A stretch of 64,000 nt of DNA, taken from positions 1-64,000 of the forward strand of contig NZ_BANS01000003.1 in NCBI RefSeq assembly GCF_000332995.1. Reading direction: 5' to 3'. The notes below the pieces were generated by a model. That model was not told where the DNA came from. It was given only the letters and a program-made list of their open reading frames with translations, and ran no database searches. Positions within the stretch are counted from its first letter, which is position 1; each line of letters opens with the position of its first letter. This document shows, one piece after another, positions 11,450-64,000 of this stretch. This stretch comes from Gordonia amicalis NBRC 100051 = JCM 11271 (GTDB lineage: Bacteria > Actinomycetota > Actinomycetes > Mycobacteriales > Mycobacteriaceae). A program made the translations under genes and the position numbers.

Positions 11450-25275
<13,826 letters not shown>

Positions 25276-25276
<1 letters not shown>

Positions 25277-40597: not shown

Positions 40598-43500
40598 TCA
40601 TGCATGTCCAGGTGAGTCGGCATCCGCTTCACGAACACCCGAGAGCGCCTGTTCGACCCGGGGACCGATCACTCCGAGCGACGCCGCATCGGTCATTCCG
40701 AGGTGGTGCGTTGCGACATCGGTGTTGTCGATCGTTCCGGACACGTGCGGCTGCCAGCTCTCGGAGATCGCGGCGGGATTCGTTTTGTCGTTCGTCGCGG
40801 TGAAGACCTGGATCGACCCGTCGAAACGCTGTGGGCGATAGTCCATCAACACCTCGGCGGACACCGCGAAGCTGTCCATCACGCGGTCGACGACGTCGTC
40901 GGCGAGCAGTCCCATTCCGGCGATCTGCGTCCGCACGATGTCGGCGACCTCTTCCGGGCTCTCGGCTTTCACCGCGTCGTCGAGGTCGAACAGGTCGCGC
41001 CAGCCGCCCAGGATGTCGGCGGTGTGGTCCGGGTTCGTCGCGGACTCCTCCTCGGCGACCACCTCGGGAGCCGGGGTCTCGCCCTCCCCCGGTGGAGCGG
41101 TGTCCATGATGCCGAGGTAGGCAACCCGTTCTCCGACGGCCTGCAGTCGCGTCGCCATCGCGTGGGCGATGATCCCGCCGATCGACCACCCGAGCAGGTG
41201 GTACGGGCCCTCCGGCTGAACCCGGCGGATCTCCTGGACGTAGCGCGCGGCGAGCTCGTGCGCGTCGGTGGCGCTGTCCTCGCCGTTGACGACGTGCGGG
41301 TCCTGGAGCCCGTAGATCGGCCGGTCGGCGATGTACGGCGCGAACCCACCGTAGAACCAGGCGAGACCACCGGCCGGATGCACACAGAACAGCGGCGGCC
41401 GCGAGCCGTCGCCGCGCAGGGTGATCAGCACGTCGTTCCCGCGGGTACTGCCCTCCTCGATACGACGGGCCAGCTCGCGAACGGTGGGATCGCTGAACAG
41501 CCAACGCAGTTCGAGCGGAAGCCCGCGGTCGTGAACCCGCGAGACGACCTGGGTCGCCGAGAGCGAGTTACCGCCGAGATCGAAGAACGACTCGGTGGCC
41601 GAGACACGGTCGACGCCGAGCACCTCGGCGAAGACCTCGGCGATGGCGCGCTCGTTGTCCGTCTCGGGTTCGACGTGGTCGACGGTCACCACGACCGGTT
41701 CCGGCAGTGCCGCCTTGTCGAGCTTGCCGACCGGCGTCATCGGGAGCGAGTCGAGGCGCGTGAGTGTCGCCGGGACCATGAAGGACGGGAGTCGTCGGCC
41801 GATGAACTCGCGGAGCTCCTCGTCGGTCACGTCCCCGGTGGTCACCAGATAGGCCGCGAGCGACGTGGCCACCGCGCCGCCGACGCCCACGACTACCGCG
41901 GAGTCGACCGCGGGATGCGCCGCGAGTGCCGATTCGATCTCGCCCAGTTCGATCCGGAGACCGCGGAGCTTGACCTGATCGTCGGTACGTCCCGAGTACG
42001 AGAGCGCGAGCGCACCGTTTGCGGATCGATTCCAGCGCACCACGTCGCCGGTGCGGTACATCCGGGAACCCTTGTCCCCGAACGGGTCCGCGACGAAACG
42101 GTCGGCCGTCAAGCCGGGCCGGTTCAGATAGCCGCGTGACAGCGGGAGGCCGGTGACGTACAGCTCACCGGGTACACCGACCGGGACCGGATGGAGACGA
42201 CTGTCGAGGACCTGCAGACCGAGTCCGGCGAGCGGCCCGCCGAGCAGGACCGGTTCGCCCGGTTCCATCGGCTCGCTGATGGTGATGCCGATCGTGGTCT
42301 CGGTGGGCCCGTACAGGTTCTGGATGCGTCGAACGGACGACCACGCGTCCTTCAACGCCTGCGGAACCGCTTCGCCGCCGACGTAGACCAGCTCGAGGGA
42401 ATCGAGTGCCTCCGGATCGAGCGTCGACAGAACGGTCGGCGTGAGGAACGTGTGCGTGACACGGTGCTCGACCATGAACTCCTCGAGCGCCGCCCCACCG
42501 ACCGCGTCGGCAGGACGGTAGGCGATGAGTCCGCCGGACGCGGTGGCGAGCAGATACTCGAGGACCGATGCGTCGAAGCTGGGCGACGCGAATCCCAGCA
42601 CCCGTGCCGGGCCGGACACCGATCCGCGCCGCATCTCCTCGCGCGCGAAGTTGGCGAGGCCGGAGTGACTGACCGACACGCCCTTGGGCCGGCCGGTCGA
42701 ACCCGAGGTGTAGATGACGTAGGCGGTGTTGTCGATCCGGGCGGGAGCGAGCCGCTCGGACTCGGACACCGGCGTCGCCGCGGAGCCCGTGAGATCGAGA
42801 CCGCCCAGGCGATACCACTCGAAGCCCTCGTCGGGCAGCGGTCCGACGGCATCCGTCGTGAGACCCAGGACGGCACCGGAATCCTCGACCATGTTCGCGA
42901 CCCGCTCGGCCGGGTAGTCGGGATCGATCGGCACGTAGCCGCCGCCGGTCTTGGCGACGGCCCAGATCGCGGTGAGCAATTCCACCGATCGCCCGATCGC
43001 CAGGGCCACCAGGGACTCCGGTCCGATGCCGCGTCCGATGAGCCAGCGCGCCAACCGATTCGACCGGGCGTCGAGCTCTTCGTAGGTGAGGGACTTGCCG
43101 GTGGCATCGACGACGGCCACCGCCTGCGGCCAGGAGCGAGCGGCCCGCTCGAAGGTCTCCGCGAGCAGTTCCGGCTGTGCGCCTCGTCCGCCCGAGACCG
43201 GGGTGAGTCGACCGCTGGTCGTGTCGTCGAGGAACAGTGCGTCGCCGACCGCCGCGTCGGCCCGGGACGTCAGCGTGTCCAGCAACTCCACCAGCCAGCC
43301 ACCGATCCGCTGGGCGGACGACTCGTCGAACAGGTCGGTGGCGTAGGTCAGCGTGGTCCGCCACGGCGCGCCAGGTTCCGGTGCCGCCGCGACGCTCACC
43401 AGGAGGTCGACCTTGGCCGGCGTGGCCGCGAGCGGCAACGGTGCGATCGCGAGATCGCCGACCGATCCGGACGGCAGGTCATCGGCGCCGGGCAGACCGC

Positions 43501-46500
43501 CGGCAGCCTGGTCGAACGTGAGCCAGACCTGGCTGAGGGGCGCGAAGGCGCCCGACCGCGCCGGCTTGAGCGCGTCGACCACGGTCTCGAACGGGACGTC
43601 GGCGTGCGCGAACGCCTCCACGTCGACGGACTTCACCCGCGAGAGCACCTCGCCGAACGACTCGGCCGGCGAGATCGGCGTCCGGAGGACGAGCGTGTTG
43701 ACGAACATGCCGACGACCCGATCCAGCTCTTCCTGACCGCGACCGGCGATCGGCGTGCCGATCGCGATGTCGTCGGTTCCGGACAGCCGCGAGAGCAACG
43801 TCGCGAGGGCGGCGTGGACCACCATGAAGTTCGTGACCCCATGGTCGTGGGCCACCGCGGCGATCCGGTCCGCGACACCGGCCGGGATCTGCACGTCGAC
43901 CCTCGCGCCTGCGCCCGACGCCGCCGTGGGCCGGGGCCGATCGGTGGGCAGGTCGATGACATCCGGCAGACCGGCGAGCTTCTCGCGCCAGTAGGCCAGC
44001 TGCGATCCGAGAACGGTGGTCGGATCATCGGGTGCACCCAGCACCTCGTGCTGCCAGAGCGCGTAGTCGGCGTATTGCACCGGCAACGGCGCGAATTCGG
44101 GTACCGCACCCGTGGTCCGGGCGACGTAGGCGGCCACCAGGTCGGCGACCAGCGGGGCAACCGACTCACCGTCGGCGGCGATGTGGTGCACGACCAGCGC
44201 GAAAACATGCTCGTCGTCGGAGATCCGCAGCACCCGCGCACGGATCGGCCACTGCCGGCTGACGTCGAAGCCGGTCATCACGTCCCGCTCCAGAGCGGCC
44301 TGATCGGTGACCTGCGTCCAGTCCAGGCGATCCGCGACCTCTGAGGCCGGGTGGATGCGTTGGAGTGGCAGGCCGTCGACCGCCGGGAAGGTGGTGCGCA
44401 ACGACTCGTGGCGCACGACGACGTCGGCCAGGGCGGCACGCAACGCCGTCAGGTCGATCGGTCCGGTCAGTCGCAGGACCGCCGGGATGTTGTATGTGGG
44501 CGACTCCCAGTCGAACTGGTTGATGAACCACATCCGCTGCTGCGCGAACGACACCGGAACGGCATCCGGCCGCGGCTCGACCGCGACGATCGGCGGCAGA
44601 CCGCGGGTTCCCGCCGCGGCCGCCGCGACCAGTTCACGAACACTGGGCGCGCCGAACACATCCCGCACGGACACGTCGACGCCCAGAGCGGCACCCGCGC
44701 GGGAGGCCAGCCGCATCGCGGACAGCGAGTTGCCACCCATGTCGAAGAAGCTGTCGGTGACACCGATCCGGTCGACGCCGAGCACCTCGGCGAAGACCTC
44801 GGCGACCCGGGCCTCCTCGTCGGTGGCCGGTGCGACGTACTCGCCGGAGGTGAATTCGGGCGCGGGCAACGACTTTCGGTCGAGCTTGCCCGCAGTGTTG
44901 AGCGGGAACTCGTCGAGCGGCATCCACACCGTGGGCCGCATGTACTCGGGCAGCGGCGTCGCGATGGCCGCCTTGACCGCGTCCAGGTCGACCGTCTCGC
45001 CGGGTGCTCCGGACACGTAGGCGACGAGGTGTTCGCCGCCGTCGGGGGCCTGGGCAACGGTCACCGCGGTGTGCACGACGCCGGGCGCCTGCGCGATCGC
45101 GGCCTCGATCTCACCGAGCTCGATCCGCTGGCCCCGGAGTTTCACCTGGAAGTCCGTCCGACCCAGGTACTCGAGCTCGCCGGAAGCATTGCGCCGCACC
45201 AGGTCACCGGTGCGGTACATCCGGGACCCGGGCTCGCCGAACGGATCCGCGAGGAACCGGTCCGCGGTCAGGTCGGGCCGGGCCGCGTAGCCGCGCGCCA
45301 ACTGGGCGCCGCCGACGTACAGCTCGCCGGGCACCCCGGACGGCACCTGGTGCAGACGCCCGTCGAGGACGTACGCCGTCGAATTCCACACCGGCACACC
45401 GATCGGCACGGTGTCACCGATCTCGTCGAGCTGCTGATACGTGATCTCGACGGCGGCCTCGGTCGGCCCGTACAGGTTGTACAGCACCGCGTCGGGCATG
45501 GCCGCGCGGGCCTCGGCGGCCACCGCGGGTGGCAGCGCCTCGCCCGTTGTGGAGAGGATCCGCAGACGATCGAGTCGGGCGAGCCGTTCGGGGCCCGCGA
45601 GTTCGAGGAACACCGACAGCATCGACGGCACGAAGTGCACCATCGTCGCGCCGGTGTCCGCGATCAGGTCGGCCAGGTACGGCGGGTCGAGGTGGCCGTC
45701 GGGCTCGGCGATGAGCAACCGCGAACCCTGCATGAGGGGACCGAACAACTCCGCGACCGAACAGTCGAAGGTGTAGGGGGTCTTGAGGACCACCATGTCG
45801 TCGGCACCGATGGGCAGTTCGTCGAGGCCCCAGCGCAATCGGTTGACCACGGCGTCGTGCGGCAGCGTCACACCCTTCGGCCGGCCCGTCGAACCGGACG
45901 TGAAGATCGTGTACGCGGCATGCTGGGGACGCAGCCGGCCACGGCGATCGGCGTCGGTGACCGGCGCGGTGTTCCCCTCGATCGGGGTCGAGGTGTCGAC
46001 CCCGATCACCTCGACGGCGTCGCCGAGGCCGGCGATCGGCTCGGGGGTCGATTGTCCGGCGTGCACGAGCGCGACTGTCGCGCCGGAGGTCTCGACCATG
46101 TACTCGGCGCGGTCGACCGGTGCGCCGGTGTCGATGGGGACGTACTGCCCACCGGCGGTGACGATCGCGTGGATCGCGACCATGAGCTCCACCGACCGCG
46201 GGATGCACACGGCCACCGCGACATCCGGACCGATCCCGGCCGCGATCAGCTGCCGGGCCAGGGTGTTGACCCGCGCCCCGAGTTCGCCGTAGGTGACGCT
46301 CCGGTCGCCGAACACGAGGGCCTCGCGATCGGGGTACTCCGCGACACTGGCAGCGAGTGCGGACGCGAGGTCCTCGGTCGGCAGTGACCTGTCGAGTCCT
46401 CGCTGCTCGGCGGTGAGTGCCGCCGCTTCCTCGGAACCGAGGATCGGCACATCGCCGACCGCCGCGTGTACGTCGAAGGTCAATCCGTCGAGCAGCGCGA

Positions 46501-49500
46501 CAAACCGTTCGGCGAGCGTGCTCACCGTCGATTCGTCGAACAGGTCCGCAGCGAAGACGACCGCGCCACCCCAGTCCCCGGTGGGCGCCGAGTTCACCAT
46601 GAACGTCAGATCCACCTGGGCCGGTGGCTCGTCGACCTCGACGCCGGAGAACACCAGGTCTCCGACCGGGAACTCGGCAGAACGTGCCGCGCCCCCCGGG
46701 TCCAGGGTGAGCATCACCTGTGCCAGCGGCGCAAAAGCCTCGCTGCGCACCGGGTTGACCGCGTCCACCACGGTCTCGAAGGGCACGTCGGCGTTCTCGA
46801 AGGCGCCCAGCGCGGCGGTCCGGGTACGTGCGACCAGGTCGACGAAGGACGCGCCGAGATCGACCTTCGACCGCAGCACCAACGTGTTGACGAACATGCC
46901 GATCAGCGGGTCGAGTTCGGGGCGACCTCGTCCGGCGATCGGGGTGGCGATGGCGATGTCGTCGGTTGCCGACATCCGCGCGAGCAGCGTCGCCAGCGCG
47001 GCGTCGAGCACCATGAACGGGGTGGCCCCGGTCCGCGTGGCCACCTCACCGATCCGCCGGGCCACGATCTCCGGGATGGCGAACTCCGCGACCCCGCCAC
47101 GACCGGTCGCGACGCGCGGCCGCGGCCGGTCGTAGGGCAGTTCCAGCAGATCGGGCATGCCGGCCAGCGCCTCGCGCCAGTATCCGAGCTGCTTGCCGAT
47201 GACGGAGCCGGCGTCCTCCGGCGAACCGAGGACCTCGTGCTGCCAGATCGCGAAATCGGCGAATTGCACACCGAGCGGTGCGAATTCGGGCGCGAACCCC
47301 TCGTGTCGTGCACTGTAGGCGGCCACCACGTCGGCGATCAGCGGACGCAGGGACTCGCCGTCGGCGGCGATGTGATGGATGACGATCGCGAGCACGTGTT
47401 CGTCGGTGCCCACCGGCCACAGCCGAACCCGGATCGGCCAGTCGACGGCCAGGTCGAACTCGGTCGTGACCGCGGCCTGGATGTCGGCCATCGATCCGGC
47501 GACATCCCAGTCGAAGCGGCCTTCGACCTCCGACGCGTCGGCCACTTCCTGGTACGGAACGCCGTCGACCGCGGGGAACCTGGTGCGCAGCACCTCATGC
47601 CGCATCGCGAGGTCGACGAAGGCGGCACGTAGCGCGGCGACGTCCAGGGGTCCGGAGAGCCGCAGCACGTTCGGGAGGTTGTAGGTGGCGCTGTCCGGTT
47701 CGAACCGGTTGATGAACCACATCCGCTGCTGCGCGAACGACAGCGGAACACGATCGGGGCGCGGCGCGACGGCGGTGATCGGCGGTAGCGCCGGACTCCG
47801 TCCCGCGACCGCCTCGACGAGTTCACGGACCGAGGGCGCGTCGAACACGTCGCGGACACGGACCTCGGCATCCAGGGCGGCCGACACCCGCGCGGCCAGC
47901 CTGGCCGCGTTGAGCGACGTACCGCCGAGGTCGAAGAAGGACTCGGTGACGCTGACCTTCTCGACGCCGAGGATGTCGGCGAAGACCGCCGCGACCGCTT
48001 CCTCCTCCGGTCCGACCGGAGCGACGTACTCGACACCGCTGAGATCCGGTGCGGGCAAACGCTCCCGGTCGACCTTGCCCGCCGCATTGACCGGCATGTC
48101 GTCGAGCAGCGTCCACACCGCAGGACGCATGAAGGGGAGCAGATGGTCGGCGGCGTGGCCGCGCAGTGCGGTCACCGTGACGTCGGTGTCGGCGGTGACG
48201 TAGGCGACGAGACTCTGCGCGCCGGTGGGGGTCTCGAGGACCGTGACGACGACCTCGCGGACACCTGGCGCGGACGCGATCACCGACTCGATCTCGCCGA
48301 GTTCGATGCGCTGGCCGCGCAGCTTGACCTGGAAGTCGATGCGCCCGAGATATTCGATCTGACCGTCGGCACGCCAGCGCACGGTGTCGCCGGTCCGGTA
48401 CATCCGCGAACCGGCGGGTCCGCTCGGATCGGCGACGAACCGCTCGGCGGTCAGGCCCGGGCGGCCGATGTAGCCGCGGGCGATCTGGATGCCGCCGAGG
48501 TAGAGCTCGCCGGGCACGCCGACCGGTACCGGATGCAGTCGCGCGTCGAGGATCTGGGCGGTGCCGTGCGGGGTCGGGACACCGATGGGCACCGTCGACA
48601 GTCCCGAACCCACTTCGGCGATGGTCGAGTAGATGACGGTCTCGGTCGGCCCGTACTGGTTGTGGAGGGCGGCCTGCGGCCAGACCCGGTGCATGGCGTC
48701 GGCCAGCGCGGGTGCGAGCGCCTCGCCGCCGAGCTGCACGGTCCGCACCGATCGCATCGCCGCGAAATCCTCGTCGGACAGTTCGCCGAGCATCAGCGAG
48801 AGCATCGACGGCACCATCATGATCGAGGTGACCCGATGCCGGATCACGTAGTCCCGCAACGCCCATGGGTCACGTTGCTGACCCTGTCCGACGATGACGA
48901 GTGTGCCCTGGCTGATGACCGGTCGGAACAGGTCGAGCACCGACGGATCGAAGGTGAAGTCGAGGACGGCCAGAACCACGTCGGCCGAGGTGAATTCGTG
49001 GTCGAGGTGATCGGCGTGCAGCGTCGCCATCGCCGCACGGTGAGACACGGTGACGCCCTTCGGCTTACCCGTCGAACCCGAGGTGAAGATGGTGTACATC
49101 GCGTGGTCGACGTGCAGCGGGGAGGTGCGGTCGGCATCGGTGATGGTCGACGTGTCGCCCGCCAGGGGCGCCGATGCGTCCACCTCGACGACCCTCACGG
49201 TCTCCGGCGCGACGCGGTCGGCGGCCTCACGCGCGTGCGCCGAGACCACGAGCACGTCCGCACCGGTGGCGTCGAGGATGTAGCGGACCCGCTCCGCCGG
49301 TGCGTCGAGGCCCACGGGCACGAAATGTCCGCCGGCGGCGATGACCGCGTGCGAGGCGATCACCATCTCGATCGACCTCGGCAGCGAGATCGCGACCGGC
49401 ACGTCGGGGCCGACGCCGAGGCCGATCAACCGGCGCGCAAGCGCATTGGTCCGGTCGGTCAGTTCTTCGTAGTCGACGGAGCGGTCACCGTCGATGACCG

Positions 49501-52500
49501 CGGTGGAGTGCAGGAACGACGGCTCGACCCTTTCCACCAGGTCGGCGAGGGTTCCCGTCCCGAGTCCCTGTTCGCGAGACGTCGTCGATCCCGACCACTC
49601 CTCGATGCGGGAGCGTTCGTCGGCATCGAGGAGTTCGATGTCGCCGATCAGGGCCTCCGGTGCGGTCACGACCGCGGACAGCACCCGGATCAGTCGATCG
49701 GCGGTCGCGCGGACCGTCGACTCGTCGAAGAGATCGGTCGCGTAGGTGACCGAACCCGACCAGGGATCTCCGGCGGGCGCGGTGTGGACACCGAAGCCGA
49801 GGTCGACCTTGGCGAGGGTGGGGCCGCCGTCGAACGGGGAGACGACCAGTCCGTTCGGCAGTTCTGCGGACCGCCGGCCCGCGCCCTGTTCGACGCTCAA
49901 CCACACCTGCGTCAGCGGCGCGAATGCCGCACTGCGGACGGGGTCGACCGCTTCGACGACCGATTCGAAGGCGACGTCGGCGTGTGCGAAGGCGGCCAGG
50001 TCCGTGTCGCGGATGTCGGCGAGCAGTTCGGTGAAGGTCGCGGAGCCGTCGACCCGCGAACGCAGGACGAGGGTGTTGACGAACATGCCGATGAGCGGCT
50101 CGAGTTCGCGCTGGCCGCGTCCGGCGAACGGCGACCCGATGGCGAGATCGTCGCTGCCCGACAGACGAGCGAGTACGACCGCCAGGGCGGCGTGCACGAC
50201 CATGTACGGGGTGACGCCCCGCTGCGCGGCGAGTTTCGTGATGCCGTCGGCGATCTCGGCGGGGATGGCGAAGTCGGCCTGCGCGCCGCGACCGGTGGCG
50301 GTCTGCGGGCGCGGCCGATCCGTCGGCAACTCCAGCACGTCCGGCAGACCCGCGAGCTGCTCGGTCCAGTACGCGAGCTGCCGGCCGACCACCGACGCCG
50401 GATCGTCCGGCGAACCGAGTACCTCGCGCTGCCACAGCGCGAAGTCGGCGTAGGACACCTCGAGCGGTGCGAAGACCGGCGACTCGCCGGTCGATCGCGC
50501 GAGGTAGGCGGTGACCAGATCGGAGACCAGCGGCGCAAAGGACTCACCGTCGGAGGCGATGTGGTGCATCACCACCGCGACCACGTGCTCCCTCGGGGCG
50601 GCCTCCCAGATACGGACTCGCACAGGCCATTCGCGCGCCAGCACGAATCCGCTCGACACCGCCGCCTCGATGTCGGCGACCGAGCCGACGTGCCGCACGT
50701 CCAGATGCTCGGCGATCTCGGAGACCTCGTGCACCAGCTGGAACGGCGTGCCGTCGGCGTCCGGGAACGTCGTCCGGAGCGTCTCGTGCCGGGACACGAC
50801 GTCGCCCATCGCGGTGCGCAGCGCCGCGACGTCGAGATCGCCGCTGACCCGCAGGACCACCGGGATGTTGTACATGCCGCTGGCCGGGTCGAGCTTGTTG
50901 ATGAACCACATCCGCTGCTGCGCATACGACAGCGGGATGAGTTCGGGGCGGGGCCTAACGCGAACGACCGGCGGCAACGCCGGGGCCGCACCAGCGGTCT
51001 TAGTGACGAGTTCGCGCACACTGGAGGCGTCGAAGACATCCCGCACCGATACCTCGACACCCAACGCCGCCGACACCCGCGCAGCCAGACGTGCCGCCAA
51101 CAGCGAGTTACCGCCCAGATCGAAGAACGACTCGGTCACACCGACCCGCTCGAGGCCCAACAGTTCGACGTAGACCGCGGCCACTGTCTCTTCGGCCGGG
51201 GATGCCGGAGCCACATACTCCGCCTCGACGAACTCCGGTTCAGGCAACGCTTTACGATCCAGTTTTCCGTTGTGGTTCAGCGGCAACCGCTCCACCGCGA
51301 CCACCGCATCAGGAACCATGTAACCGGGCACGTGCTCGGCCATCGCCGACCGCACCGCAGCCGTGTCTAGGTCCTCACCGGCTCCCACGACGAGGTAACC
51401 GACCAGCTGATCTCCGCGCACCGCGTCGGTAATCACCCGCGCCGCAGCCGCAGCCGCCGTCGGTAACGCCGCTAGCAGCGCCGCCTCGATCTCACCGAAC
51501 TCAATCCGGAAACCACGCAACTGCACCTGCGCGTCACCACGACCGAGGTACTCGATATCGTCACCGATCCGCCGCGCACGGTCACCGGTCCGATACATCC
51601 GCGACCCATCACCAGCAAACGGATCAGCCACGAACCGGGTCGCCGACAACCCCGGACGCTTCAAGTAACCGGCGGCCAGCTGCCCACCGGTCACATACAT
51701 CTCCCCCGGCACACCCTCAGGCACCGGATGCAGCCGGTCATCGAGGATGTGAATCCCCAACGACGCCAACGGACGACCGATCAACGACGCATCGGTACCA
51801 GCCACCAGATCCCGGTCCAGCGCACGGAAACTCACATGCACCGTGGTCTCGGTGATGCCGTACATGTTCACCAACCGCGCCGAATCCGACGGATCCTCAT
51901 CGAACCAACGACGCACCTGATCGAAACTCAGCGCCTCACCACCGAAGACCACATACCGCAACGCCAGATCACGATCGGCCTCGCGACGGGCATCGATCAA
52001 CTGATAGAACGCCGACGGCGTCTGACTCAACACCGTCACCCGCTCAGCCGCCAACAAATCCACGAATGCCCGCGGATCCCTTGCCAACTCCCGATCCACA
52101 ATCAGCAGTCGCGCACCGGTCAGCAGCGGGCCCCACATCTCCCACACCGAGAAGTCGAATGCATACGAGTGGAACATCGTCCACACATCCGACGCCAAGA
52201 ACTCGAAATCGGTTGCAGCGGTGTCCATCAACGTCACCACATCACGATGAGTGATCTCCACACCCTTCGGCCGTCCCGTCGACCCCGACGTGTAAATCAC
52301 ATAAGCGCGTGCATCCGCCGGCACCCTGACCTGTGCCCATGAACCCGAAACCCGTTCACCAGCAAGCACTTCCACATCGACAACCTGCGCCGAAACCGGC
52401 AGACGCCGCCACAGAGAATGACCGGACGACGACGCATCACCGATCACCACCGACACCTCGGCATCGGACACGATGAACGACAACCGTTCCACAGGATTGC

Positions 52501-55500
52501 CCAAATCCAAAGGCAGATACCCCGCACCCACCTTCAAAACACCCAGAATCGACGCCATCAGATCCACCGAACGCGCAGTCGCAATACCCACCAGATCACC
52601 AGCAGCCACACCCCGAGCAGCCAAACCAGCAGCCACCGCATCCGACCGCGCATCGAGCTCCGCATACGACAGCGACCGACCCGACGCCGACACCGCAACA
52701 CGATCACCATGGGCCACAACCGAATCAGTGAACAGATCCACCAACGTACGGCCAGCGTTCTTCGTCTGTGTCACAGGAGAGGGCAACTGCGCCAACGCAA
52801 CACGCTCACCAGCCGACAACAAGTCCACGTCACCGACCGCCACCGACGGATCCGCCGACAACACATCGAGCACCCGCACAAACCATTCCGACATCCGCTG
52901 CGCCGTCGACGCGTCGAACAAATCAGTCGCGGCAACCACCGAACCCGACCAAACGCCCTCAGCACCGATCTCGACATACAGCGTCAGATCCCGCTGCGCA
53001 GGCACCTCCTCGATGACCACCGGCGCGAACCTCAGATCGCCGAAATCCATCTCCTGCGGAACATCGCCGGTCTTCGGAGCCGCAACCAGCATCACCTGCG
53101 CCAACGGCGTAAAGGCCTCCGACCGCACCGGATCTACCGCGTCGACGACCGCCTCAAACGGCACATCCGCATTCGCAAACGCGTCCACATCGGCCTTGTG
53201 AACCTGCTGCAGGAACAAGGAGAAGGAAGTACCCGGATCGACCACGGTACGCAGCACGAGGGTGTTGACGAACATCCCCACCAGCGGGTCGAGCGCTTCC
53301 TGCCCACGCCCCGCAATAGGCGTACCGATCGCGATGTCATCGGTCGCACTCAACCGCGACAACGTCACCGCCAAAGCGGCATGCAACACCATAAACGGTG
53401 TCATGCCACGTGCCTCAGCGACCTTTCGCACACGCTCAGCGACCGCCGACGGAACCTCGAAAACCGTCCGTACACCACGCCCGGACGCCGCCTGCGGCCG
53501 CGCCCGATCCGCTGGCAACTCCAACACATCCGGCAACCCAGCCAACTGCTCAGTCCAATACGCCAATTGCCGGCCGACCACCGACTCCGCATCATCCGGC
53601 GACCCGAGCACGTTGCGCTGCCAGATCGCGTAATCGGCGTACTGTACATCCAACGGCCCAAATACCGGCGACTCGCCACTCGATCGCGAGAGGTACGCAG
53701 CGACCAGATCAGTCACCAACGGCGCCAGCGATTCACCGTCCGATGCGATGTGGTGCATCACCACCGCGACGACATGCTCCCCCGGTCCGGATTCCAAGAC
53801 ACGTGCCCGCACAGGCCACTCACGCTCCAGCGCGAACCCACCCGAGAGCGCCGCCTCCACGTCGGAAATCGCGCCCACCTGCCGCCAGTCCAGGCGTTCA
53901 GCAATCTCGTCTACACCGTGGACGACCTGGAACGGCTCCCCATCAGCACTCGGGAACGTCGTCCGCAACACCTCATGCCGCGCCACCACATCACCCAACG
54001 CCACGCGCAACGCATCCACATCGAGCGAACCCGAGACACGCAACAACGCCGGAATGTTGTACATCCCGCTTGACGGATCGAGCTTGTTGATAAACCACAT
54101 CCGCTGCTGCGCAAACGACAACGGAATACGACCCGGACGCGCATCCACGCGACCCACCGGGGGCAACACGGCGGCGTCCATGCCGCCGACGGCCTCGGCG
54201 AGGGCCCGGACGGAACCGGCTTCGAAGACGTCCCGAACCGAGACCGCCACACCCAGTTGATCGGACAACCTGGCCGCGAGCCGTGCCGCGGAGAGGGAGT
54301 CGCCGCCGAGCTCGAAGAAGCTCGACGTCGCCGAGACGAGACCGGCGTCGATGCCCAGGACCGCGGCGACCACGTCGGCGATCGTGCTCTCGGTGCCGGC
54401 GGCCGGGGCCACGTACTCCCCGGCCTCCAGAACCGGCTCCGGCAGCGCCCGCTTGTCGAGCTTGCCGACCGGCGTCAGGGGCAACTCGTCGATCACGGTG
54501 AACGACGAGGGCACCATGAAGCCCGGCAGGCGCCGGCCCGCAAAGGCCTTCAGCTCGGACACCTCGACGGTGCCGTCGACCGGGACGATGTACGCGGCCA
54601 GCGCCGTCGCCACGGAACCGCCGACGCCGAGGACCACGGCGGATTCGACGGCGTCGTGCTCGGCGAGCACGGCCTCGATCTCCCCCAGCTCGATGCGCAG
54701 ACCGCGCAGCTTCACCTGATCGTCGGAACGGCCGGTGTACTCGAGGGTGAGGCCGCCGGTGGCCGGCTCGGGAGTCCACCGGACCACGTCACCGGTGCGG
54801 TACATCCGTTGCCCGGCTCGGCCGTACGGGTTGGCGGTGAACCGTTCGGCGGTGAGGCCGGACCGATCGAGGTAGCCGCGGGAGAGCGCGACTCCGGCCA
54901 CGTACAGTTCGCCCGGCATCCCGACGGGCACCGGTCGCAGCCGCTCGTCGAGGACCAGCAGGTCCACTCCGCCGATCGGGCCACCGAGGCGCACCGGGGC
55001 GCCCGGCTCCATCGCCGGCGAGATCGTGATGCCGATCGTCGTCTCGGTGGGGCCGTACAGGTTGTGCAGCTCGGTCGCCCCCGACCAGCGGTCGACGATC
55101 GTCTGCGGCACGGCTTCGCCGCCGGCCGCGATCACCCGGAGACTCGGCACCTCGGCCGGATCCAGCGTGGAGAGCACCGACGGGGTCAGGAACGTATGTG
55201 TCGCACCGTGTTCGGCGATGAAACGGGCCAGCGCAGGCCCGCCGACCGCCTCCGACGGCCGATACGCCACGGTTCCCGAGGTGACCGTGGCCAGCAGGTA
55301 CTCCAGCACCGAGGCGTCGAAGCTCGGTGAGGCGAACCCGAGGACCACCGGCTTCTCGCCGGCATCGAGGCGTTCGGCTTCCTGTCGTGCGAAGTTCGCG
55401 AGGCCCGAATGGGAGACGGCCACGCCCTTGGGACGGCCCGTCGATCCGGACGTGTAGATGACGTAGGCCAGGTTGGCCGCGGTGACCGGTCCGAGCCGTT

Positions 55501-58500
55501 CGGCGTCGGTGATCGGCCCGGTCGGCTGCGCGGCGATCTCGGCGGCCGCCGAGTCGTCGTCGAGCCGCACCCACTCGAAGTCCCGGGCCGGCAGGTCACC
55601 GGACTCCGTCACCGACAGTCCCAGTACCGCCCCGGAATCCTCGATCATGGACGCGACGCGCTCGGCCGGGTAGTCGGGGTCGATCGGCACATAGGCTCCA
55701 CCGGTCTTCGCGACCGCCCAGATCGCGGTCAGCAGTTGTGCCGAACGACCGATCGCGAGAGCGACCGCACGTTCGGGTCCGACGCCGCGACCGATCAGCC
55801 AGCGGGCCAGTCGATCCGACGCCTCATCGAGTTCCCGGTATGTCAGTCGTGCTCCGGAGCCGTCGACGAGGGCCACGTCGTCGGGCGCGCGGCGCACCGC
55901 AGCCCGGAACAGATCGGTCAGCGTGACCGGGTCCGCGGCGGGACCGCCGGTCACCGGTGTGAGCGCGACACCTGCTTCGCCGGAGAGAAGCGGGAGCTCG
56001 GCACATGTCGCGTCAGGACCGTCGGCGATGGCTCCGAGCAGCTCGGACAGGACGTCGGCGAAGACCGCCACCTGTTCGGGAGCGAACGCGGTCGGCAGGT
56101 ACTTGATCTTCAGTGCGAGTTCGGCACCGCGACGGGACGCCGACAGATTGAGCGGATAGTGCGTGGCGTCCGAAGTCTTGGCGCCGATCAGCTTCAGGCC
56201 ACCGGCCGACGACGCATCGATACCGGCCACCGAGTCGACGTTCACCGGGAACGACTCGTAGACCGCGAGTGTGTCGAACAGCGCGGGTAGCCCGGTCTGT
56301 GCGGCGAGCATCGGCAGACCGATCTGCTGATGGTCGAGGACCTTCACCTTGTCGTTCTGGACGGCGGTCAGCACGTCGACGACAGTGGCGTCGGGGTCGA
56401 CGTCGACGACTGCCGGGATCGTGTTGATGAACATGCCGACCATCGACTCGATGCCCTCGATCTCGGGTGATCGACCGGACACGGTCTCCGCGAAGGTCAC
56501 CGTCCTGGTGCCGGTCAGCCGGGAGAGGAAGACCGCCCAGGCGAACTGGACGACCGTCGACATCGTGGTCGAGTTGTCCCGTGCCAGGGCCTCGAGACGC
56601 TCGGTGACCTCTACGTCGAGGGCGAACTCGTGGTCTCGGGGCGGCGCGTCGGCGGACGGCTCGTGGCCCGGCGCGACCAGCGTCGGCTCGCTCACCGGTG
56701 CGAGCACCTCACGCCAGGCGGTGAGCCCGGCGGCGATGTCGGTGGTCGCGACCGCGCGCGCATGATCGGCGAAATCACGTCCCGAGGCATCCGGCAGCGA
56801 CCCGGTGAAGGTCTCTCCGGTCGCATAGAGCGACAGGAGGTCGGCGAGGACGAGTGGGCTCGACCATCCGTCGATCAGCAGGTGATGGTTGGTGACCACG
56901 AGTTCGGCGCCGTCGCGATGCTCGACGAGCACCACGCGGATCAGCGGGGGCTCCGCCATGTCGAACGGCGTGGCCCGCTCGGCCGCCAGCACGGCGTCGA
57001 CGCGACTCTCGTGAGAGGCGGCGTCCTCCGCGCGTAGGTCGATCACGCTCCACGGCACGGTCACCTCGGCGGGCACGACCGTGACCGCCGCACCGCTCGG
57101 CAACCGGACGAAGCCCGATCGCAGGACCCGCTGGCGTGCGAGAAGTTCGCCCAGCGCGGCCCTCAGACGCTCGGGGTCCACGTCACCGGTCAGCGACAGG
57201 ACGGTCTGCGTGACGTAGACGTCGATGGCATCGTGATCGGCGACGGTGCTCGCCAGGTCGGCCTGGAAGAAGAGGCCCTGCTGCAGCGGCGTCATCGGCC
57301 AGACGTCGGCGCCGGGGTACTGCTCGGCGATGAGGTCGAGATCATCCTGGGTGACCTCGACACCGGGCACGTCGGCGCGACTGAGCCCGATGTCGGCACC
57401 ACCGTCGACGAGCGCGGCGACCGCGCGCAGCTCCTCGTGCCAGCGGCGGGCGATGTCGGACGCCGCGGTCTCGTCGAGCACGTCCGTGGCGTAGGTGACC
57501 TTCGCTTCCAGCCGTTTCTCGTCCCGGCCGGCCGTGCTGATGTTGATCCCGAAGACGCTCGGTGACCGCATCGCACCCGTGATGGTGCTCGGCATGTTCG
57601 GGCGGTCGGACACCGGCAGGAAGTCGTCGGGCGCGGTGTCCGCGGACGGTGCCGTGCCGCCGCCGAAGAAGTTGTACATGATCGTCGGGAGCGGTCGGTC
57701 GGCGATCTCGCCGTCCGAGTTGTAGCGGAGGATGCCGAATCCCACGCCGCCTGCCGGACGCGAGAGTCGCGCGTCCTTGGCCGATTTGACCGCGTGCACG
57801 ACGTCGCTCGACGCGGTGACCGCGAGCGGGGTGATGCTCGTGAACCACCCGACGGTGCGGGACAGATCGATGGCGCCGTGGTCGCCGGCGATGCTCTCGT
57901 CCCGGCCGTGCCCCTCGGTCGAGACCGTGACCGGCCCGTCGTCGGCGATGCCGTTGTCGAGCTGCCAGGCGCGCACGGCCCGCGCGAGTGCGCCGAGGAG
58001 TACGTCGTCGACGCTGCTTCCGAACGCCTGGGGAACCGTGGTCAGGATCGGCCCGGCGACATCGTCGACCACATACGTCAGCGAGGACTCGTCGCGCCAA
58101 CGGTGTAGTGCCTGATCTGCGGTGTCGCCGAACGATGTCGGCCTCACCGGTAGCTGCTCGAGCCAGTAGTCGACCTCGGCCGCGCGTGCGTCGACCTGAT
58201 CGGCCAGGAGGTGTGCGATCCGTCGGGCGGAAGTCCCCTCGGGTCGGAGTTCGATCGGCCGCCCGGACGTGAGTTGCGCCCAGGCCGTGACGAGGTCCTC
58301 GACGAGGACGGGCCACGAGACGGCATCCACACCGAGGTGGTGGATGGCGATCACGAGGCGGCGGCCCTCGCCGTTGACCACTGCGGTTCCGAAGAGGGAG
58401 CCGGTTTCCGGGTCCAGCGCGCCGAGCAGCTCCCGGTGGGCGTCGACGAGGGCCGGGTCCAGCGGGCCCGCCGCGTCGATCTCGCGGACGGCCGGAACCG

Positions 58501-61500
58501 TGCCCGCCCCGGCCGTCATGGTCCAGGCGTCCCCGGTCCGCGTGAGGACCGCGGTCAGCATCGGATGGGCTGCCGCGACCGCTTCGACGACGGTCTGCAG
58601 GTCGGCGATCGCGGCGGCCCTCGGCACGTTGAACACGAGCGACTGCGAGAAGTCGGCGAAGTCGGACGGATGTTCGGAGTGCTCGATCATCCAGGACGTG
58701 ACCGGCGGGAGAGGCATGTCGCCGGTGCCGCCGCCCGGCAGCTCCTCGATCAGTGCGGCCGGACCGCCCGAGGCCGCCGCAGCGGCGGCCATGGCGCGAA
58801 TCGTCTTCAGCTCGAAGATCTCTCGCGGAGACAGGTGTATGCCCGCCGCCTTCGCCGCCGACGACAGCTGGATCGACATGATCGAGTCACCGCCGAGGGC
58901 GAAGAACGACTCGGTGACGCTGACCCGCTCTTCCCCCAGAAGGCCTGCGACGATGCGTGCCAGGTTCTCTTCGGCGGGGTCGGCCGGCGCGACGAATTCG
59001 GCCGGCTCAGCGGCATGCGGTTCGGGCAGCGCGGTGCGATCGAGTTTGCCCGCGGGCGTCAGCGGGATCTCGTCGATGACGATCGCCTGGGCCGGCACCA
59101 TGTGCGCGGCCAGATGTCGGGCCGCCTCGTCGAGGACCGCGGCGCTGTCGATGGTCGCGCCCGGTTTCGCGACCAGGTAGGCCACGACCTCGGTGTGCTT
59201 GCGTCCCCCGCGGGTCGACTCGACGCCGACGACGACCGACTGCGCGACACCCGGCTGCGCGTCGAGCACGACCTCGATCTCACCGAGTTCCACACGCTGG
59301 CCGTTGATCTTGACCTGGTGGTCGGCGCGGCCGGCGAACTCGAGGTTGCCGCCCTTGGCCACCCGCACGAGGTCGCCGGTGGCGTACATCCGTGTGCCCG
59401 GCTCGCCGAACGGATCGGCGACGAAACTGGTCGACGTCTGGCCGGGACGGCCGAGGTAGCCGCGTGCCAGGCCTGCGGTGGACAGATAGAGTTCGCCCAC
59501 CACGCCCTGGGGCACCTCGTGCAACCGTCCGTCGAGGACGCGAACGGTGAAGCCGTCCACCGGCTTCCCGATCGTCACCGGCTTGCCGGCCGTCAGACGC
59601 GACCGGGTGGCCCACACCGTGGCCTCGGTGGGTCCGTAGCAGTTGAAGATGCGGCGGCCGCGCTCGGACCATCGCTCGACGAGTTCCGGCGGACACGCCT
59701 CACCACCGGTCGCCAGGTTCCGCACATACTGTGCGCGTTCCGGGTCGACGGTCGCCAGCACCGACGGCGTGATGATCATGTCGGTGACCTCGTCGCGGTC
59801 CAGCACTTCGGCGAGCGCATCGCCGGCGAAGTCGGTGTGCGGTGCGATCACCAGGGTGTGGCCCGCGGGGATGGCCCAGGCCATCTCGAACATCGAGGCG
59901 TCGAAGCTCGGCGACGCGACATGCAGGATCCGGGTGTCGGGCTCGTCTTCCGGTGTGCCGGTGGTGATCTTGGCGAGCGAGTTGACGAAGTCGACGATGC
60001 CGGTGTGCGAGACGCCGACGGCCTTGGGTCGGCCGGTCGAACCGGATGTGTAGATCAGGTAGGCGAGGTTGGTCAGCCGCACGGATCCGTTGCGCTCGGC
60101 GTCGGTGATGTCGTCGCCGGATTCGGCTTCGGCCTCGAGATCGGCGAGATCGACCCATTCACAGACGGATTCGCCGAGGCGAGCACGGGTTCCGGCATCG
60201 GTGATGCCGACGGTCGCACCCGAGTCGTCGAGCATGTAGGCGATGCGGTCTGCGGGATACGCCGGGTCGACGGGCACGTAGGCGGCACCGCTCTTGATGA
60301 CGCCCCACGTCGCGAGGACCGAGCCGATCGACCGCTCCATCCCCACGGCGACAACGTCTTCCGGGGAAACGCCGCGGGCGAGCAACGCTCGCGCGATCGC
60401 GTTGGTGCGCGTCTCGAACTCGTCGTAGTCGATCTCCGTGCCGTCGCAGATGAGCGCCGGGTGGTCGGGGTCGAGGTCGCGCTGGGCGAGGACGTCGATG
60501 AGTGTCCCGGCCTCGACCTCGCCGCCGCGGCCGACCATCGCGCCGGGCGTGCGAACCGCGACCGCCGCCGCGGGCGCCGACTCCACGCGTTCTGCACCGA
60601 CGATGTCGATGTCGCCGACCGCGATGTCCTGGTTCTCTACGACAGCGGTCAACACACGCCGGTACACCTCGGCGAACCGCTCCACGGTGGACTCGTCGAA
60701 GAGATCGGTGGCGTAGATGAAGTCCGCGGCCATCGGCGCGCCGGCGCTGCGTGCGCGGATCGCGACGGTCAGGTCGAACTTGGCGTTGACGGCACCCGGA
60801 GCGACAGGCGCGGCCTCGATGCCCGCCGCCTCGAGCTCCGCGGCCTCACCGTCGATCGCCTCGGTGTAGGTGAACGCGATCTGCGCAAGCGGCTGGTACG
60901 ACGACGACCGTTCCGGGGCCAAGGTCTCGATCAGATCGTCGAACTGCACCTGGTCGTTGGCGAAGGCGTCGAGCACAGTGGTGCGCACGCTGCCGAGCAG
61001 GTCGCCGACGCTGCGGCCGGGATCGACCTGTGTGCGCAGCAGCAGGGTGTTGACGAACATCCCGATGAGGTCTTCGACTGCGGCGTCGTTCCGGCCCGCG
61101 ATCGGGGTCCCGATCACCACGTCGGTACTCGAGGAGAGTCGGGCGACGGTCGCCGCGAAGGCCGCTTCGGTGACCATGAACGCGGTCATCGTGTTGCTGC
61201 GGGCGAGCACATCGACGCGGTCGGCGAGACCGTCGTCGAACTCGACGGTCACCGTTGCTCCCGCGGTGCCGAGCACGGCGGGTCTCGGTCGGTCCATCGG
61301 CAGATCCGTCACCGCGGGCAGACCGGCGAGCACACGCCGCCAATGGCTCAACTGTTCGCCGAGAACGCTTGTCTCGTCGTCGGCGTCGCCGAGGACGCTC
61401 TGCTGCCACAACGCGTAGTCCGCGTACTGCACATCCAGAACCGGCAAGCCGCCGGTGCGACCCTCTGCCCGCGCCGCATAGGCAGACATCAGATCTCGCG

Positions 61501-63724
61501 CGAGGACCGGGATGGACTGACCGTCCATCGCGATGTGGTGCATCGTCAGGGCGACGTGCAGACCTGCCCCGTCGCGATGGAATCGTCCCCGGAGTGACAT
61601 CTGGGTACTGACGTCGAAGCCCTCCGTGGTCGAGCGGACCAGTGTCTCGACGGAGTCGGCTTCGCGCCAGTCGAGCTGTTCGCGGGCGACCGCGACGGGC
61701 AACACGTCCTGCACCGGCGCGGCACCGACCGACGGGTAAACGGTACGCAGTACCTCGTGACGTTCGACGACGTCGCACAGCGAGTCGAAGAGCAGTGTCT
61801 CGTCGACATCGCCCGCGAGCGTGAGCGCGGCCGGGATGTTGTATGCGCCGGACGCGGTGTCGAACTGGTTGAGGAACCACATCCGACGCTGGGCCCGGGA
61901 GAGCGGCAGTCGTTCGGGCCTCGGCTCGATGCGCTTCACCGACGGCAAGGCGGACCCGCGACCACTGACAGCGTGGACGAGGCCGCGGACGCTGGGCGAC
62001 TCGAAGACGTCACGAACCGACACGTCGACGCCGAGTTCCTTCGAGACCCGGGCTGCGATGCGCGCAGCCGACAACGAACTGCCGCCGATGTCGAAGAACG
62101 AGTCGGTGACGCCGACACGTTCGACGTCGAGAAGCTCGGCGAACAGACCGGCGACGGTTTCCTCGTCTGCATTACCTGGCGGCACGTACAGAGTCGGCGC
62201 GATCACCGGTTCGGGCAGCAGACGCCGATCGACCTTCCCCGAGCGATTCAACGGCATGGCGTCGAGCCGTACCCAGGCGCTGGGTCGCATGTACTCGGGC
62301 AACAGTTCTGCGGTAGTTGCAGCGACGGTGTCGACATCCACGTCGGCCGGGGCGAGGTAACCGACCAATTGCTGGCCGCCGGGCCCGTCGACCACCGCCG
62401 CCGCCGCGTGGAGCACCCCGGGAGCCGCGGCGAGAGCGGCCTCGACCTCGCCGAGCTCGAGGCGCTGGCCTCGCAACTTGACCTGAAAGTCGGTGCGCCC
62501 CAAGTACTCTATTTCCCCGTCACGATTCCACCGAGCCCGGTCGCCGGTGCGGTACAACCGCGCACCGGGCTCGCCGAAGGGGTCTGCGACGAATCGCTCT
62601 GCAGTCAGATCCGGCCGCCCGGCATAGCCACGGGCCAACTGGACACCGCCCAGGTACAACTCGCCCGGGACACCGATGGGGACTTCGCGCAATGCCGCGT
62701 CGAGAACGCGCGCCGACACCCGACGAGTCGGGGTTCCGATCGGGATCACCCGGTCGTCCTGTGTCACCCGATGAATCGTCACGACGATCGAGGCCTCGGC
62801 CGGCCCATATTGATTCTGGAGCCGCGTCCCGGGCAACCGCGCCATCAGGTCGCGAGCGACCGGTGGTGTCAGGGCCTCCCCGCCGGTCTGGATGAGACGC
62901 AGCGAGGTCAACTCGCCGACCCCGGCCCCGAGAACCTCGTTGAACGCAGCCAGCATCGCCGGGACGAAGTGGATGACCGTGACCCCGTGGCGGCGGATCA
63001 GATCCGCCAGGTGGACCGGATCGCCGTGCCTGCCCGGCTCCGCGATGACCAGCGTGGCACCGATCGCGATCGGCAGAAAGATCTCTCGGACCGACACATC
63101 GAACGTGATTGGCGCCTTGTAGAGAAACACGTCTCGCGCGGTCAGGTCGTACTGTCCGATGTCGGCTGCCAGCCGGTTGGCGATACCCCGGTGGGCGATG
63201 ACAACTGCTTTCGGACGCCCCGTCGACCCCGACGTGAACAGGGTGAAGGCGGCGTTGGCAGGTCTGGTCGGACCCGCGAACTCTTCCTCGTCCAGACCCG
63301 CGTCACCCGGAGTCGAGATGTCCAGGACATGCACATCGACGACGTCGTCGAAACGCGATCGCGCTTCGGCTTCCCCATCGCTGGTCACCACGACGAGCCG
63401 AACTCCGGCAGTCCGCACCATGTAACGAGCACGGTCGACCGGCAACTGCTCGTCGAGGGGTACGAAGTGCCCGCCTGCCATCGCGACCGCATGGATGGCG
63501 ACGACCTGTTCGACGGAACGGTCGATCTGGATACCGACTGCGACTTCTGCCCCGACACCCAGCGCGGTGAGCTCCCGGGCCAGCCTCGCCACTCTGCGGT
63601 CGAACTCTGGACGGCTCACGGTCCGATCACCATGGATGATGGCCGGACGGTCAAGGGAAGCGTCCAGGGCAGTCATGGTCCGTAATCTCTCGCTGTCAGT
63701 CCTCTTGTTAACCACTTCACCCAC
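40598..63724 (-). CDS. Giant seven-A-domain non-ribosomal peptide synthetase with epimerase and thioesterase (NRPS 2)
   Basis: The 7,708-residue protein starts at GTG 63724 with GGAG 7 bases upstream; ATG 63676 is an alternative. Domains: A1-T1, C2-A2-T2-E, C3-A3-T3, C4-A4-T4, C5-A5-T5, C6-A6-T6, C7-A7-T7, TE. Carrier serines lie at about 550, 1614, 3143, 4207, 5270, 6333 and 7387; the TE serine at about 7514 (GWSIGG). E shows [10 protein letters not shown] (about 1795); C3 after it has [10 protein letters not shown], as expected for a D-accepting condensation domain. Pockets: A1 DVRHQGQIV, A2 DAFIAGCVW, A3 DALFAGLIG, A4 DFWSVGMVH (threonine code, with [10 protein letters not shown]), A5 DPLMQGQIY, A6 DCAHSTLVE, A7 DALFYGLIG. 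Only A4 is assigned with confidence. It begins with an A domain because its C domain is on the upstream protein. Confidence 0.96.
50930..54165 (-). other. Module 4 of NRPS 2 with foreign-looking codon use
   Basis: Across the C4-A4-T4 module, codons shift to T- or G-ending choices (GCT, GGT, TTG, CGG, ATT), while the rest of the gene uses mainly C-ending codons. Lines counted by hand inside (52021, 52561, 52741) have about 60-63% GC, against about 65-68% at 46441, 55021 and 58141. The borders fall in the T3-C4 linker and after T4, so the unit is exactly one module, the one specifying threonine. Confidence 0.7.
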
Positions 63725-64000
63725 CGGTCCGCTCCGTCGCGACGCGTGCGTATGCGATCAGGTCTCTGAGCGTTTCCGGGGCATCCGCGTCATCAAGCCC
63801 GCGGGCCCACTCTTGCAGCTGGGCACGCTCGTCATCAGTCGTCAACGGGATGTCGATAAGTGCGATCGAGGGATCTTCGACGGCGGAGGTCAGAATCCTG
63901 ACGAATCGATCGGCAAAGGTCCGCACGGTGAAACTGTCGAAGAGGTCCGTCGCATAGACCATTCGAACCTCCCCGCCACCGCCGCGCTCGGTCACGACTG
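63717..64000 (-). CDS. Upstream NRPS protein, C-terminal end of a condensation domain (partial at window edge)
   Basis: Only the last 94 or so codons are in the window. VRMVYATDLFDSFTVRTFADRFVRIL and DIPLTTDDERAQLQEWARG match the last strand and linker of the C domains in NRPS 2 (compare [22 protein letters not shown]). The protein ends [20 protein letters not shown], exactly where an A domain would begin, and the stop overlaps the GTG of NRPS 2 by 8 bases. The C domain here and A1 of the next protein thus make one module across two proteins. The rest of this protein lies beyond 64000. Confidence 0.85.
   Translation of the reverse strand, partial: VVTERGGGGEVRMVYATDLFDSFTVRTFADRFVRILTSAVEDPSIALIDIPLTTDDERAQLQEWARGLDDADAPETLRDLIAYARVATERTGG

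What the first reader, a model, noticed from the sequence alone, without database searches (positions are those of the whole stretch)
50930..54165. One whole C-A-T module with different codon usage: likely recent module swap
Codon choice changes sharply over module 4 (GCT, GGT and TTG rich) and returns to normal at both ends, with borders in the linkers. This is a natural example of a module as the exchange unit, and it carries the threonine-specific A domain, so it would have changed the peptide. C4 and C5 remain alike in protein sequence, so the donor was related.
Basis: partly seen in the sequence, partly recalled or inferred. Interest (0 to 1): 0.75.

Follow-up and report, generated by a model that had tools for sequence, protein, structure and literature searches.

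The report
Relic skewed gene-conversion tract in synthetase
One module of a giant peptide-synthetase gene is written mostly with codons ending in G or T, and comparison with relatives suggests this comes not from a foreign donor but from repeated copying between similar modules, in a direction apparently set by DNA replication, which gives a testable idea of how such skewed repeats arise.

Summary
The composition step is real: window 54160-51038, one C-A-T module, scores 274 against at most 17.5 in 300 synonymous shuffles. It is not a donor signature. Third positions lose C and gain G and T. Two more such tracts lie in the same cluster; relatives carry the same skewed module at another position; homologous domains differ in state at 79-86% protein identity. 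Fresh tracts coincide with near-identical within-cluster repeats: these are GRINS, known from polyketide synthases. Here the tract lacks a partner above 80% over 500 bp, so it is a relic, not a strict GRINS.

New: mirror-image A/C tracts exist, and polarity follows replication: G/T tracts 35 co-directional, 2 head-on; A/C tracts 1 and 8 (one further head-on G/T cluster uncounted; origin assumed central in 19 of 49 rows). Keto bases thus sit on the lagging-strand template, where NucS removes G-G, G-T and T-T mismatches in M. smegmatis. G000 has NucS and no detected MutS. That NucS-filtered conversion makes the skew is inferred, not shown.

The parts
40598..63724 (-). gene D, 7708-aa NRPS, last of four NRPS genes of the cluster (the others: C92 63717-66974, 66991-76914, 76911-84953)
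   Evidence: open reading frames and translation
51038..54160 (-). tract with G/T-ending codons (relic of a skewed conversion repeat)
   Evidence: maximum-scoring segment against synonymous shuffles; segmentation
52793..54130 (-). condensation (C) domain inside the tract
   Evidence: PF00668, residues 11-456 of window:50753-54160
51263..52729 (-). adenylation (A) domain inside the tract (AMP-binding and AMP-binding_C parts)
   Evidence: PF00501 residues 478-833 and PF13193 residues 890-966
51005..51187 (-). carrier (T) domain at the tract's end
   Evidence: PF00550 residues 992-1052
63717..64000 (-). 3' end of gene C (C92 63717-66974), which carries a second G/T tract just beyond the window (C92 65180-64023)
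   Evidence: segmentation; profile

Best explanation
The tract is the fading remnant of a skewed gene-conversion repeat (GRINS type). Similar modules of an assembly-line cluster copy stretches of about 1-3 kb from one another. In these events some base differences pass and others are rejected, so converted stretches drift to G/T (keto, K) on one strand and A/C (amino, M) on the other, at synonymous sites and to a lesser degree at amino-acid sites. The favoured strand is the lagging-strand template: genes co-directional with replication become G/T at third positions, head-on genes A/C. Most likely cause: a donor single strand anneals to the exposed lagging template, and the actinobacterial mismatch nuclease NucS removes G-G, G-T and T-T mismatches but ignores A-C, C-C and A-A. 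Template K with donor M gives a keto-keto mismatch, which is undone; template M with donor K gives an amino-amino mismatch, which is inherited. Repeated rounds saturate the tract with K. In this genome the module no longer has a close partner, so mutation brings C and A back (C3 .20, A3 .05). Shown: composition, coincidence of fresh tracts with repeats, state differences between close homologues, association of polarity with replication. Inferred: lagging-strand annealing, the NucS step, and fading.
For: Tract and borders. Three tracts in one cluster. At identical amino acids, M>K changes 132, 145, 163, 150, 127 against K>M 24, 19, 20, 12, 16 in five normal-to-skewed pairs; normal-normal controls 57:67 and 72:49. 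At fourfold sites over six pairs C>G 253, C>T 166, A>G 45, A>T 15. In seven of ten two-copy clusters identity is 98-100% over most of the tract and falls to about 40-85% in the windows next to it. In PKS genes of G352 and G517 repeats have A/C shares of .14-.36 against .52-.64 outside in ten of the repeat-bearing frames. Mirror A/C tracts. Polarity: K 35 co-directional and 2 head-on, M 1 and 8, p 1.5e-6; dnaA-located rows alone 22:1 and 0:4, p 2.8e-4; genus g34 alone 18:2 and 1:5, p .0018. NucS found, MutS_V not found in G000. In vivo NucS specificity on lagging-template oligonucleotides (passages of PMC11551744 and PMC11551767).
Against: G495 has two K-type clusters in head-on orientation (the second is not in the count), G940 one, and G858 is a weak co-directional M. 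Rows share ancestry, and the origin is assumed at the contig centre in 19 of 49 rows. In G352 a PKS frame with 1224 repeat codons has no K skew (.62 against .57); repeats in L173 and L176 show none either. The second normal-normal control leans to M>K (72:49, p .045). NucS was tested only in G000; its presence or absence elsewhere is assumed from taxonomy. Published surveys report GRINS, if less often, in phyla assumed to lack NucS and in some eukaryotes (PMC10394414 passage). Some MutS bacteria show a mild shift (Bradyrhizobium L122 .34 against .42, L087 .32 against .46).
Confidence: 0.65

Rival explanations
1. Recent swap of a whole module from a related donor with different codon usage. The composition would be the donor genome's.
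For: Sharp borders in linkers; only G000 of four species compared has this module at this place.
Against: The same skew occurs in two other tracts of the cluster and in the same module at another place in relatives; close homologues differ in state; the gene B tract has no A and 6% C at third positions, which I recall for no genome.
Confidence: 0.07
2. Mutation linked to transcription, such as deamination of the displaced coding strand in R-loops.
For: Most tracts found are G/T on the coding strand, but these loci came from G/T queries.
Against: C>G exceeds C>T at fourfold sites (253 against 166); A/C tracts on the coding strand exist; neighbouring G517 loci on opposite strands share the chromosome-strand polarity.
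Confidence: 0.05
3. Replication-strand mutation bias (leading strand rich in G and T) amplified in often-converted tracts, without a role for NucS.
For: Polarity agrees with the usual sign of strand skew (the usual sign is recalled).
Against: Saturation (0% A/C over 100 codons in G352) and the clean keto/amino split including C>G; non-actinobacterial repeats show no mean shift (26 loci).
Confidence: 0.18
4. Selection on the sequence itself: weak mRNA or DNA structure, or G/T-rich DNA favoured by RecA.
For: G/T-only strands pair poorly with themselves and RecA is said to prefer G/T-rich DNA (both recalled).
Against: CTG is replaced by the otherwise rare TTG; bases that change amino acids shift too in three of five pairs (p .0009-.0018; the other two p .11 and .26); mirror A/C tracts; RecA is general while 78 non-actinobacterial loci lack saturated tracts.
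Confidence: 0.05

Closest known systems
[quoted passage not shown] 2021; original not held; passages seen in PMC10394414, PMC9899208, PMC11907408)
   Same: Strong GC and TA skew over 1-3 kb, gene-conversion repeats in assembly-line genes; in relatives the tracts are near-identical within-cluster repeats.
   Different: The window's tract is in an NRPS, has no partner above 80% over 500 bp in its own cluster and is partly faded. Mirror polarity and its link to replication are not mentioned in the passages seen.
NucS/EndoMS mismatch repair of actinobacteria and archaea (PMC8228993, PMC11551744, PMC11551767, passages)
   Same: Its mismatch set (G-G, G-T, T-T) separates keto from amino bases, it acts on heteroduplex at the lagging template, and it limits recombination of diverged sequences.
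   Different: Described as mutation avoidance and recombination barrier; a compositional drive is not described in the passages seen.
Module exchange and concerted evolution in assembly lines (PMC9205934, passages)
   Same: Modules change place or are homogenised; the finding's module appears to have changed position within the cluster.
   Different: That work, in the passages seen, does not deal with skew.

Membership tests
[quoted passage not shown]
   Window 51331-53250 GC .28 and TA .35; 53281-54180 GC .25 and TA .27.
GRINS | At least 500 bp with over 80% identity to another region of the same cluster | tested here: not met
   No such region in G000 C92 40001-85500 in my ungapped 150-nt scan; best 1080-bp stretch averages .80 at the 75% threshold, highest five-window mean .83. 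Relatives G034 and G173, among others, have 100% identical skewed pairs.
GRINS | Located in a PKS (or hybrid) assembly line | tested here: not met
   The window's gene is an NRPS. Same kind of tract found in PKS genes of G352, G517 and G495. That GRINS occur in other gene families is recalled from the original abstract.
Imported module with donor codon usage | Skewed composition confined to the imported stretch | tested here: not met
   Two more tracts in the cluster; state differs between close homologues.
Imported module with donor codon usage | Module absent at this position in relatives | tested here: met
   G056, G034 and G025 have another module there.
NucS-filtered conversion | Host has NucS and lacks MutS | tested here: met
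   G000: PF01939 147 bits; no PF00488 match at E <= 0.001. Not tested in the other genomes.
NucS-filtered conversion | Polarity set by the lagging-strand template | tested here: inconclusive
   43 of 46 classed rows agree with shared ancestry and named exceptions; not tested for G000 itself, whose contig carries no known origin.
NucS-filtered conversion | Bias lost without nucS | not testable with these tools
   Needs a deletion strain.

The most novel reading that the evidence does not exclude
Skewed repeats of actinobacterial megasynthases are made by a keto-biased gene conversion aimed by the replication fork: donor strands anneal to the lagging template and NucS erases keto-keto mismatches, so co-directional genes are rewritten to G/T and head-on genes to A/C, recoding synonymous sites and in part the proteins of natural-product synthetases.
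Probability: 0.45. Interest if true: 0.9.

Novelty: new variant of a known kind. Interest (0 to 1): 0.7.

Why it matters
How GRINS arise is, as I recall from the original abstract, unknown. A rule that predicts from gene orientation which strand becomes G/T, and a named enzyme whose published specificity would cause it, turn that into a question that one deletion strain and one inverted cassette can answer. If true, mismatch repair has been rewriting natural-product synthetases without selection, and codon skew marks past exchange units, which would be useful for synthetase engineering.

Tried and rejected
Considered and dropped: foreign donor; GC-biased conversion (Asp goes to GAT 36 of 36 in gene B); deamination (C>G too frequent); coding-strand processes (mirror tracts). 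Repeats alone do not suffice: Methylocystis L088 has 99.9% repeats with ordinary composition, though one of its 99.6% repeats is mildly shifted (C3 .23, T3 .21). The differences between near-identical copies were too few to inform. The 6081-aa gene of G079 is A/C-rich along its length without sharp borders and was not counted as a tract. No structure prediction was run. The mycolactone synthase, recalled as homogenised, came to mind as a comparison and was not fetched, because it is a toxin locus on a virulence plasmid.

Selection to bear in mind: genus and family loci were found with a skewed DNA query; G/T and A/C tracts of Streptomyces-like genomes with a skewed query each. PKS regions were chosen by PF02801 from 7 of the 12 genomes searched; in three of those 7 (G352, G495, G517) NRPS tracts were already known. 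In one search the actinobacterial sets overlap and many were chosen by a G/T query, so its p-value is not used.

Left out of the polarity count: near-centre G915 (K, co-directional), G868 (K, head-on if the origin is central) and G453; six M-query loci without an extreme state (L284, L288, L294, L295, L300, L303; all co-directional); G321 and G301 (dnaA found, contig length not printed); loci on contigs without dnaA and not chromosome-sized. Three of 49 rows were unclassed (G057, G776, G495p). For G495p I used L270, which does not hold the island; the island (G495:C1 5403100-5408733, minus strand, lowest 100-codon A/C share .12) would add a third head-on K. The contig length of G137 was a rounded figure. 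G088 rows were classed K (lowest .01) although a frame on the same strand also reaches .93 A/C, which I did not examine.
Full report
What was checked. The window is contig C92:1-64000 of an unnamed 4.9-Mb genome, G000. The finding lies in a 7708-aa NRPS gene (gene D) on the minus strand, the last of four NRPS genes (C92 40598-84953). Third positions in the tract are A .047, C .199, G .518, T .236 against .061.488.376.074 in the rest of the gene. The best segment is 54160-51038; its score of 274 is far above the 17.5 maximum of 300 synonymous shuffles. Its description as a GC3 change is incomplete: the main change is from C to G or T.

Not one tract but three. Profiles of the other three genes and segmentation of all four gave two more tracts, in gene B (571 codons, A3 0.000, C3 .061) and gene C. 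In 535 codons of the gene B tract all 36 Asp codons are GAT, 41 of 50 Leu are TTG, 43 of 45 Ser are TCG, and Val makes up 99 residues. A foreign donor would have to use almost no codon ending in A or C.

Relatives. With the gene B tract as DNA query, 59 of 59 genomes of the genus (G000 included) and 266 of 301 of the family sample had a match. Of the 30 genus loci returned (one is G000's own) and 18 further loci from other genera, 21 and 18 have a 100-codon stretch with at most 15% A or C at third positions; these loci were selected by similarity to a skewed query. Gene B is orthologous in G025 (90% DNA), G034 (84%) and G056 (85%). Domain maps of five genomes: at the place of the finding only G000 has the skewed module; G056, G034 and G025 have a normal-codon A domain of another kind before the orthologous C domain. 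G056 and G034 carry the skewed module elsewhere (85 and 83% DNA over its length), while the skewed C domain of G000 gene C resembles (79-80% aa) the normal-codon C domain that G056 and G034 have at the finding's place. This looks like an exchange of modules between two positions of one assembly line. The G025 contigs end between these places, so its full order is unknown.

State differences between close homologues. Normal and skewed versions were compared at identical amino acids: five pairs at 79-86% protein identity show M>K 132, 145, 163, 150, 127 and K>M 24, 19, 20, 12, 16; two more pairs gave 156:23 (83%) and 104:13 (64%). Two normal-normal controls gave 57:67 (p .42) and 72:49 (p .045). 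Amino-acid-changing bases at codon positions 1-2 lean the same way (46:31, 42:16, 54:25, 30:21, 49:22; p .11.0009.0015.26.0018). Over six pairs at fourfold sites C>G (253) exceeds C>T (166), with A>G 45 and A>T 15, against G>C 43, T>C 6, G>A 12 and T>A 3. The process separates G/T from A/C and ignores transition or transversion and GC content.

Coincidence with repeats. In ten clusters with two skewed copies, seven pairs (L064, L067, L068, L069, L071, L077, L080) are 98-100% identical over most of the tract and fall to about 40-85% in the windows next to it, where the composition changes too; L065, L070 and L074 are partly diverged. PKS regions chosen by PF02801 in seven genomes (three of the seven were known to hold NRPS tracts): in G352 and G517 most exact repeats coincide with G/T tracts (A/C down to 0% over 100 codons in G352 and 4-10% in G517), but one G352 frame with 1224 repeat codons shows none (.62 against .57); G495 has one G/T tract; G432 repeats and a G517 gene are A/C-rich; G612 and G453 have few repeats and G643 none. 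Among 20 NRPS regions of 14 genomes fetched without regard to composition, three genomes (G352, G495, G517) have G/T tracts, G528 has an A/C tract and G079 a diffuse A/C gene.

Known kind. Skewed near-identical repeats in PKS genes are called GRINS; I saw passages in PMC10394414, PMC9899208 and PMC11907408. The original paper was not held; that its abstract calls the mechanism unknown and mentions other gene families is recalled. With their thresholds in my own ungapped scan, the window's tract meets the skew criterion but not the 80% identity criterion. I therefore call it a relic or derivative of GRINS, not a strict one.

Mirror tracts and polarity. A 382-bp exact repeat in G528 has C3 .90, A3 .05, G3 .06, T3 0 and lies in a Thr- and His-rich stretch; further A/C tracts were found in G777 and G604, a G517 PKS gene and other Streptomyces-like genomes. 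dnaA was located in 30 genomes. Of 49 rows 46 could be classed: K-type 35 co-directional and 2 head-on, M-type 1 co-directional and 8 head-on, Fisher p 1.5e-6; dnaA-located rows alone 22:1 and 0:4, p 2.8e-4; genus g34 alone 18:2 and 1:5, p .0018. In 19 rows the origin is assumed at the contig centre, and rows share ancestry. Exceptions: G495 (also a PKS tract not in the count), G940, G858. PKS loci of G517 on opposite strands, some 5 to 65 kb apart, have opposite coding polarity; in 300-nt windows of extreme skew the plus strand is A/C-rich in 31 of 31 (L264), 8 of 8 (L266) and 11 of 13 (L267), while L265 has only one such window, of the other sign. In G088 a pair of copies 97.2% identical over 6738 bp, on opposite replichores, is co-directional and K-type in both places.

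Mechanism. The keto-rich strand is then the lagging-strand template. In M. smegmatis, oligonucleotides annealed to that template gave over 500-fold fewer recombinants when they formed G-G, G-T or T-T mismatches than with all other mismatches; in the nucS deletion all were incorporated (PMC11551767, passages); repair is largely confined to about 5-6 bp (PMC11551744, passages). NucS also limits recombination between diverged sequences (PMC8228993, passages). Put into a conversion between diverged modules at the fork, these facts give the ratchet described: K is kept and M is replaced by K, site by site. G000 has NucS and no MutS_V match; other genomes were not tested for either. In 78 non-actinobacterial NRPS loci no 100-codon stretch reaches 15% (lowest .17), and the 26 of them with enough exact repeats show no mean shift, with single values from -.14 to +.21. 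This link is correlation plus published biochemistry, not a demonstration, and published reports of GRINS in cyanobacteria, firmicutes and some eukaryotes stand against a strict requirement if those lack NucS.

Print. Searches for NucS with biased gene conversion, for GRINS, and for NucS or skew with gene conversion listed no paper in this open library that, from titles, abstracts and the passages I opened, makes the connection; most subscription papers are not in it. A preprint on M. tuberculosis paralogues suggests reduced NucS action during recombination from a T>C excess (PMC13061034, passage).

Verdict. A real feature, correctly located, whose explanation is not a recent donor swap but a relic of skewed gene conversion, with a module exchange in its history. 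The rule met on the way, that polarity follows the fork, is the part of interest.

Noticed in passing
window 11009-25276 (+): A second NRPS gene (4755 aa; four C, four A and four T stretches and a thioesterase by Pfam) without a skewed tract (100-codon A/C share .43 to .75).
   Followed up: partly
L178 codons 199-326 and 1242-1368 of the frame at 4024; L248; L249; L264: Mirror tracts: repeats written with A/C-ending codons, in head-on genes.
   Followed up: yes
G495:C1 4904001-4944000 (L183, L184) and 5403100-5408733 (L268): G/T tracts in genes that run against the inferred fork, the clearest exception to the polarity rule.
   Followed up: partly
L215+L170+L216 (G079:C62): A 6081-aa NRPS frame whose A/C share rises along the gene (GAA 154 to GAG 11 in the 3893-aa part in L170), without sharp borders.
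   Followed up: no
L088 (Methylocystis bryophila plasmid p1): NRPS genes with 99-100% identical repeats of up to 2.3 kb and nearly ordinary composition, a natural control in a MutS lineage.
   Followed up: partly
L093, L108, L122, L125, L106, L117: NRPS of Bradyrhizobium, Xanthomonas and Photorhabdus with moderately low A/C share (mean .34-.36, lowest 150-codon stretch .21-.26), a weaker shift toward G/T in lineages outside actinobacteria.
   Followed up: no
L253 (G576:C20): A repeated module that is G/T-rich in its first part and turns A/C-rich later, so both polarities may meet in one repeat.
   Followed up: no
L072 and L073 (G088): Near-identical NRPS copies (97.2% over 6738 bp) about 3.2 Mb apart on opposite replichores, both co-directional and G/T-type.
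   Followed up: partly
C92 97619-101653 (L010, L015): Frames whose starts read like ribosomal proteins (my reading of the translations) lie about 13 kb upstream of the NRPS cluster.
   Followed up: no
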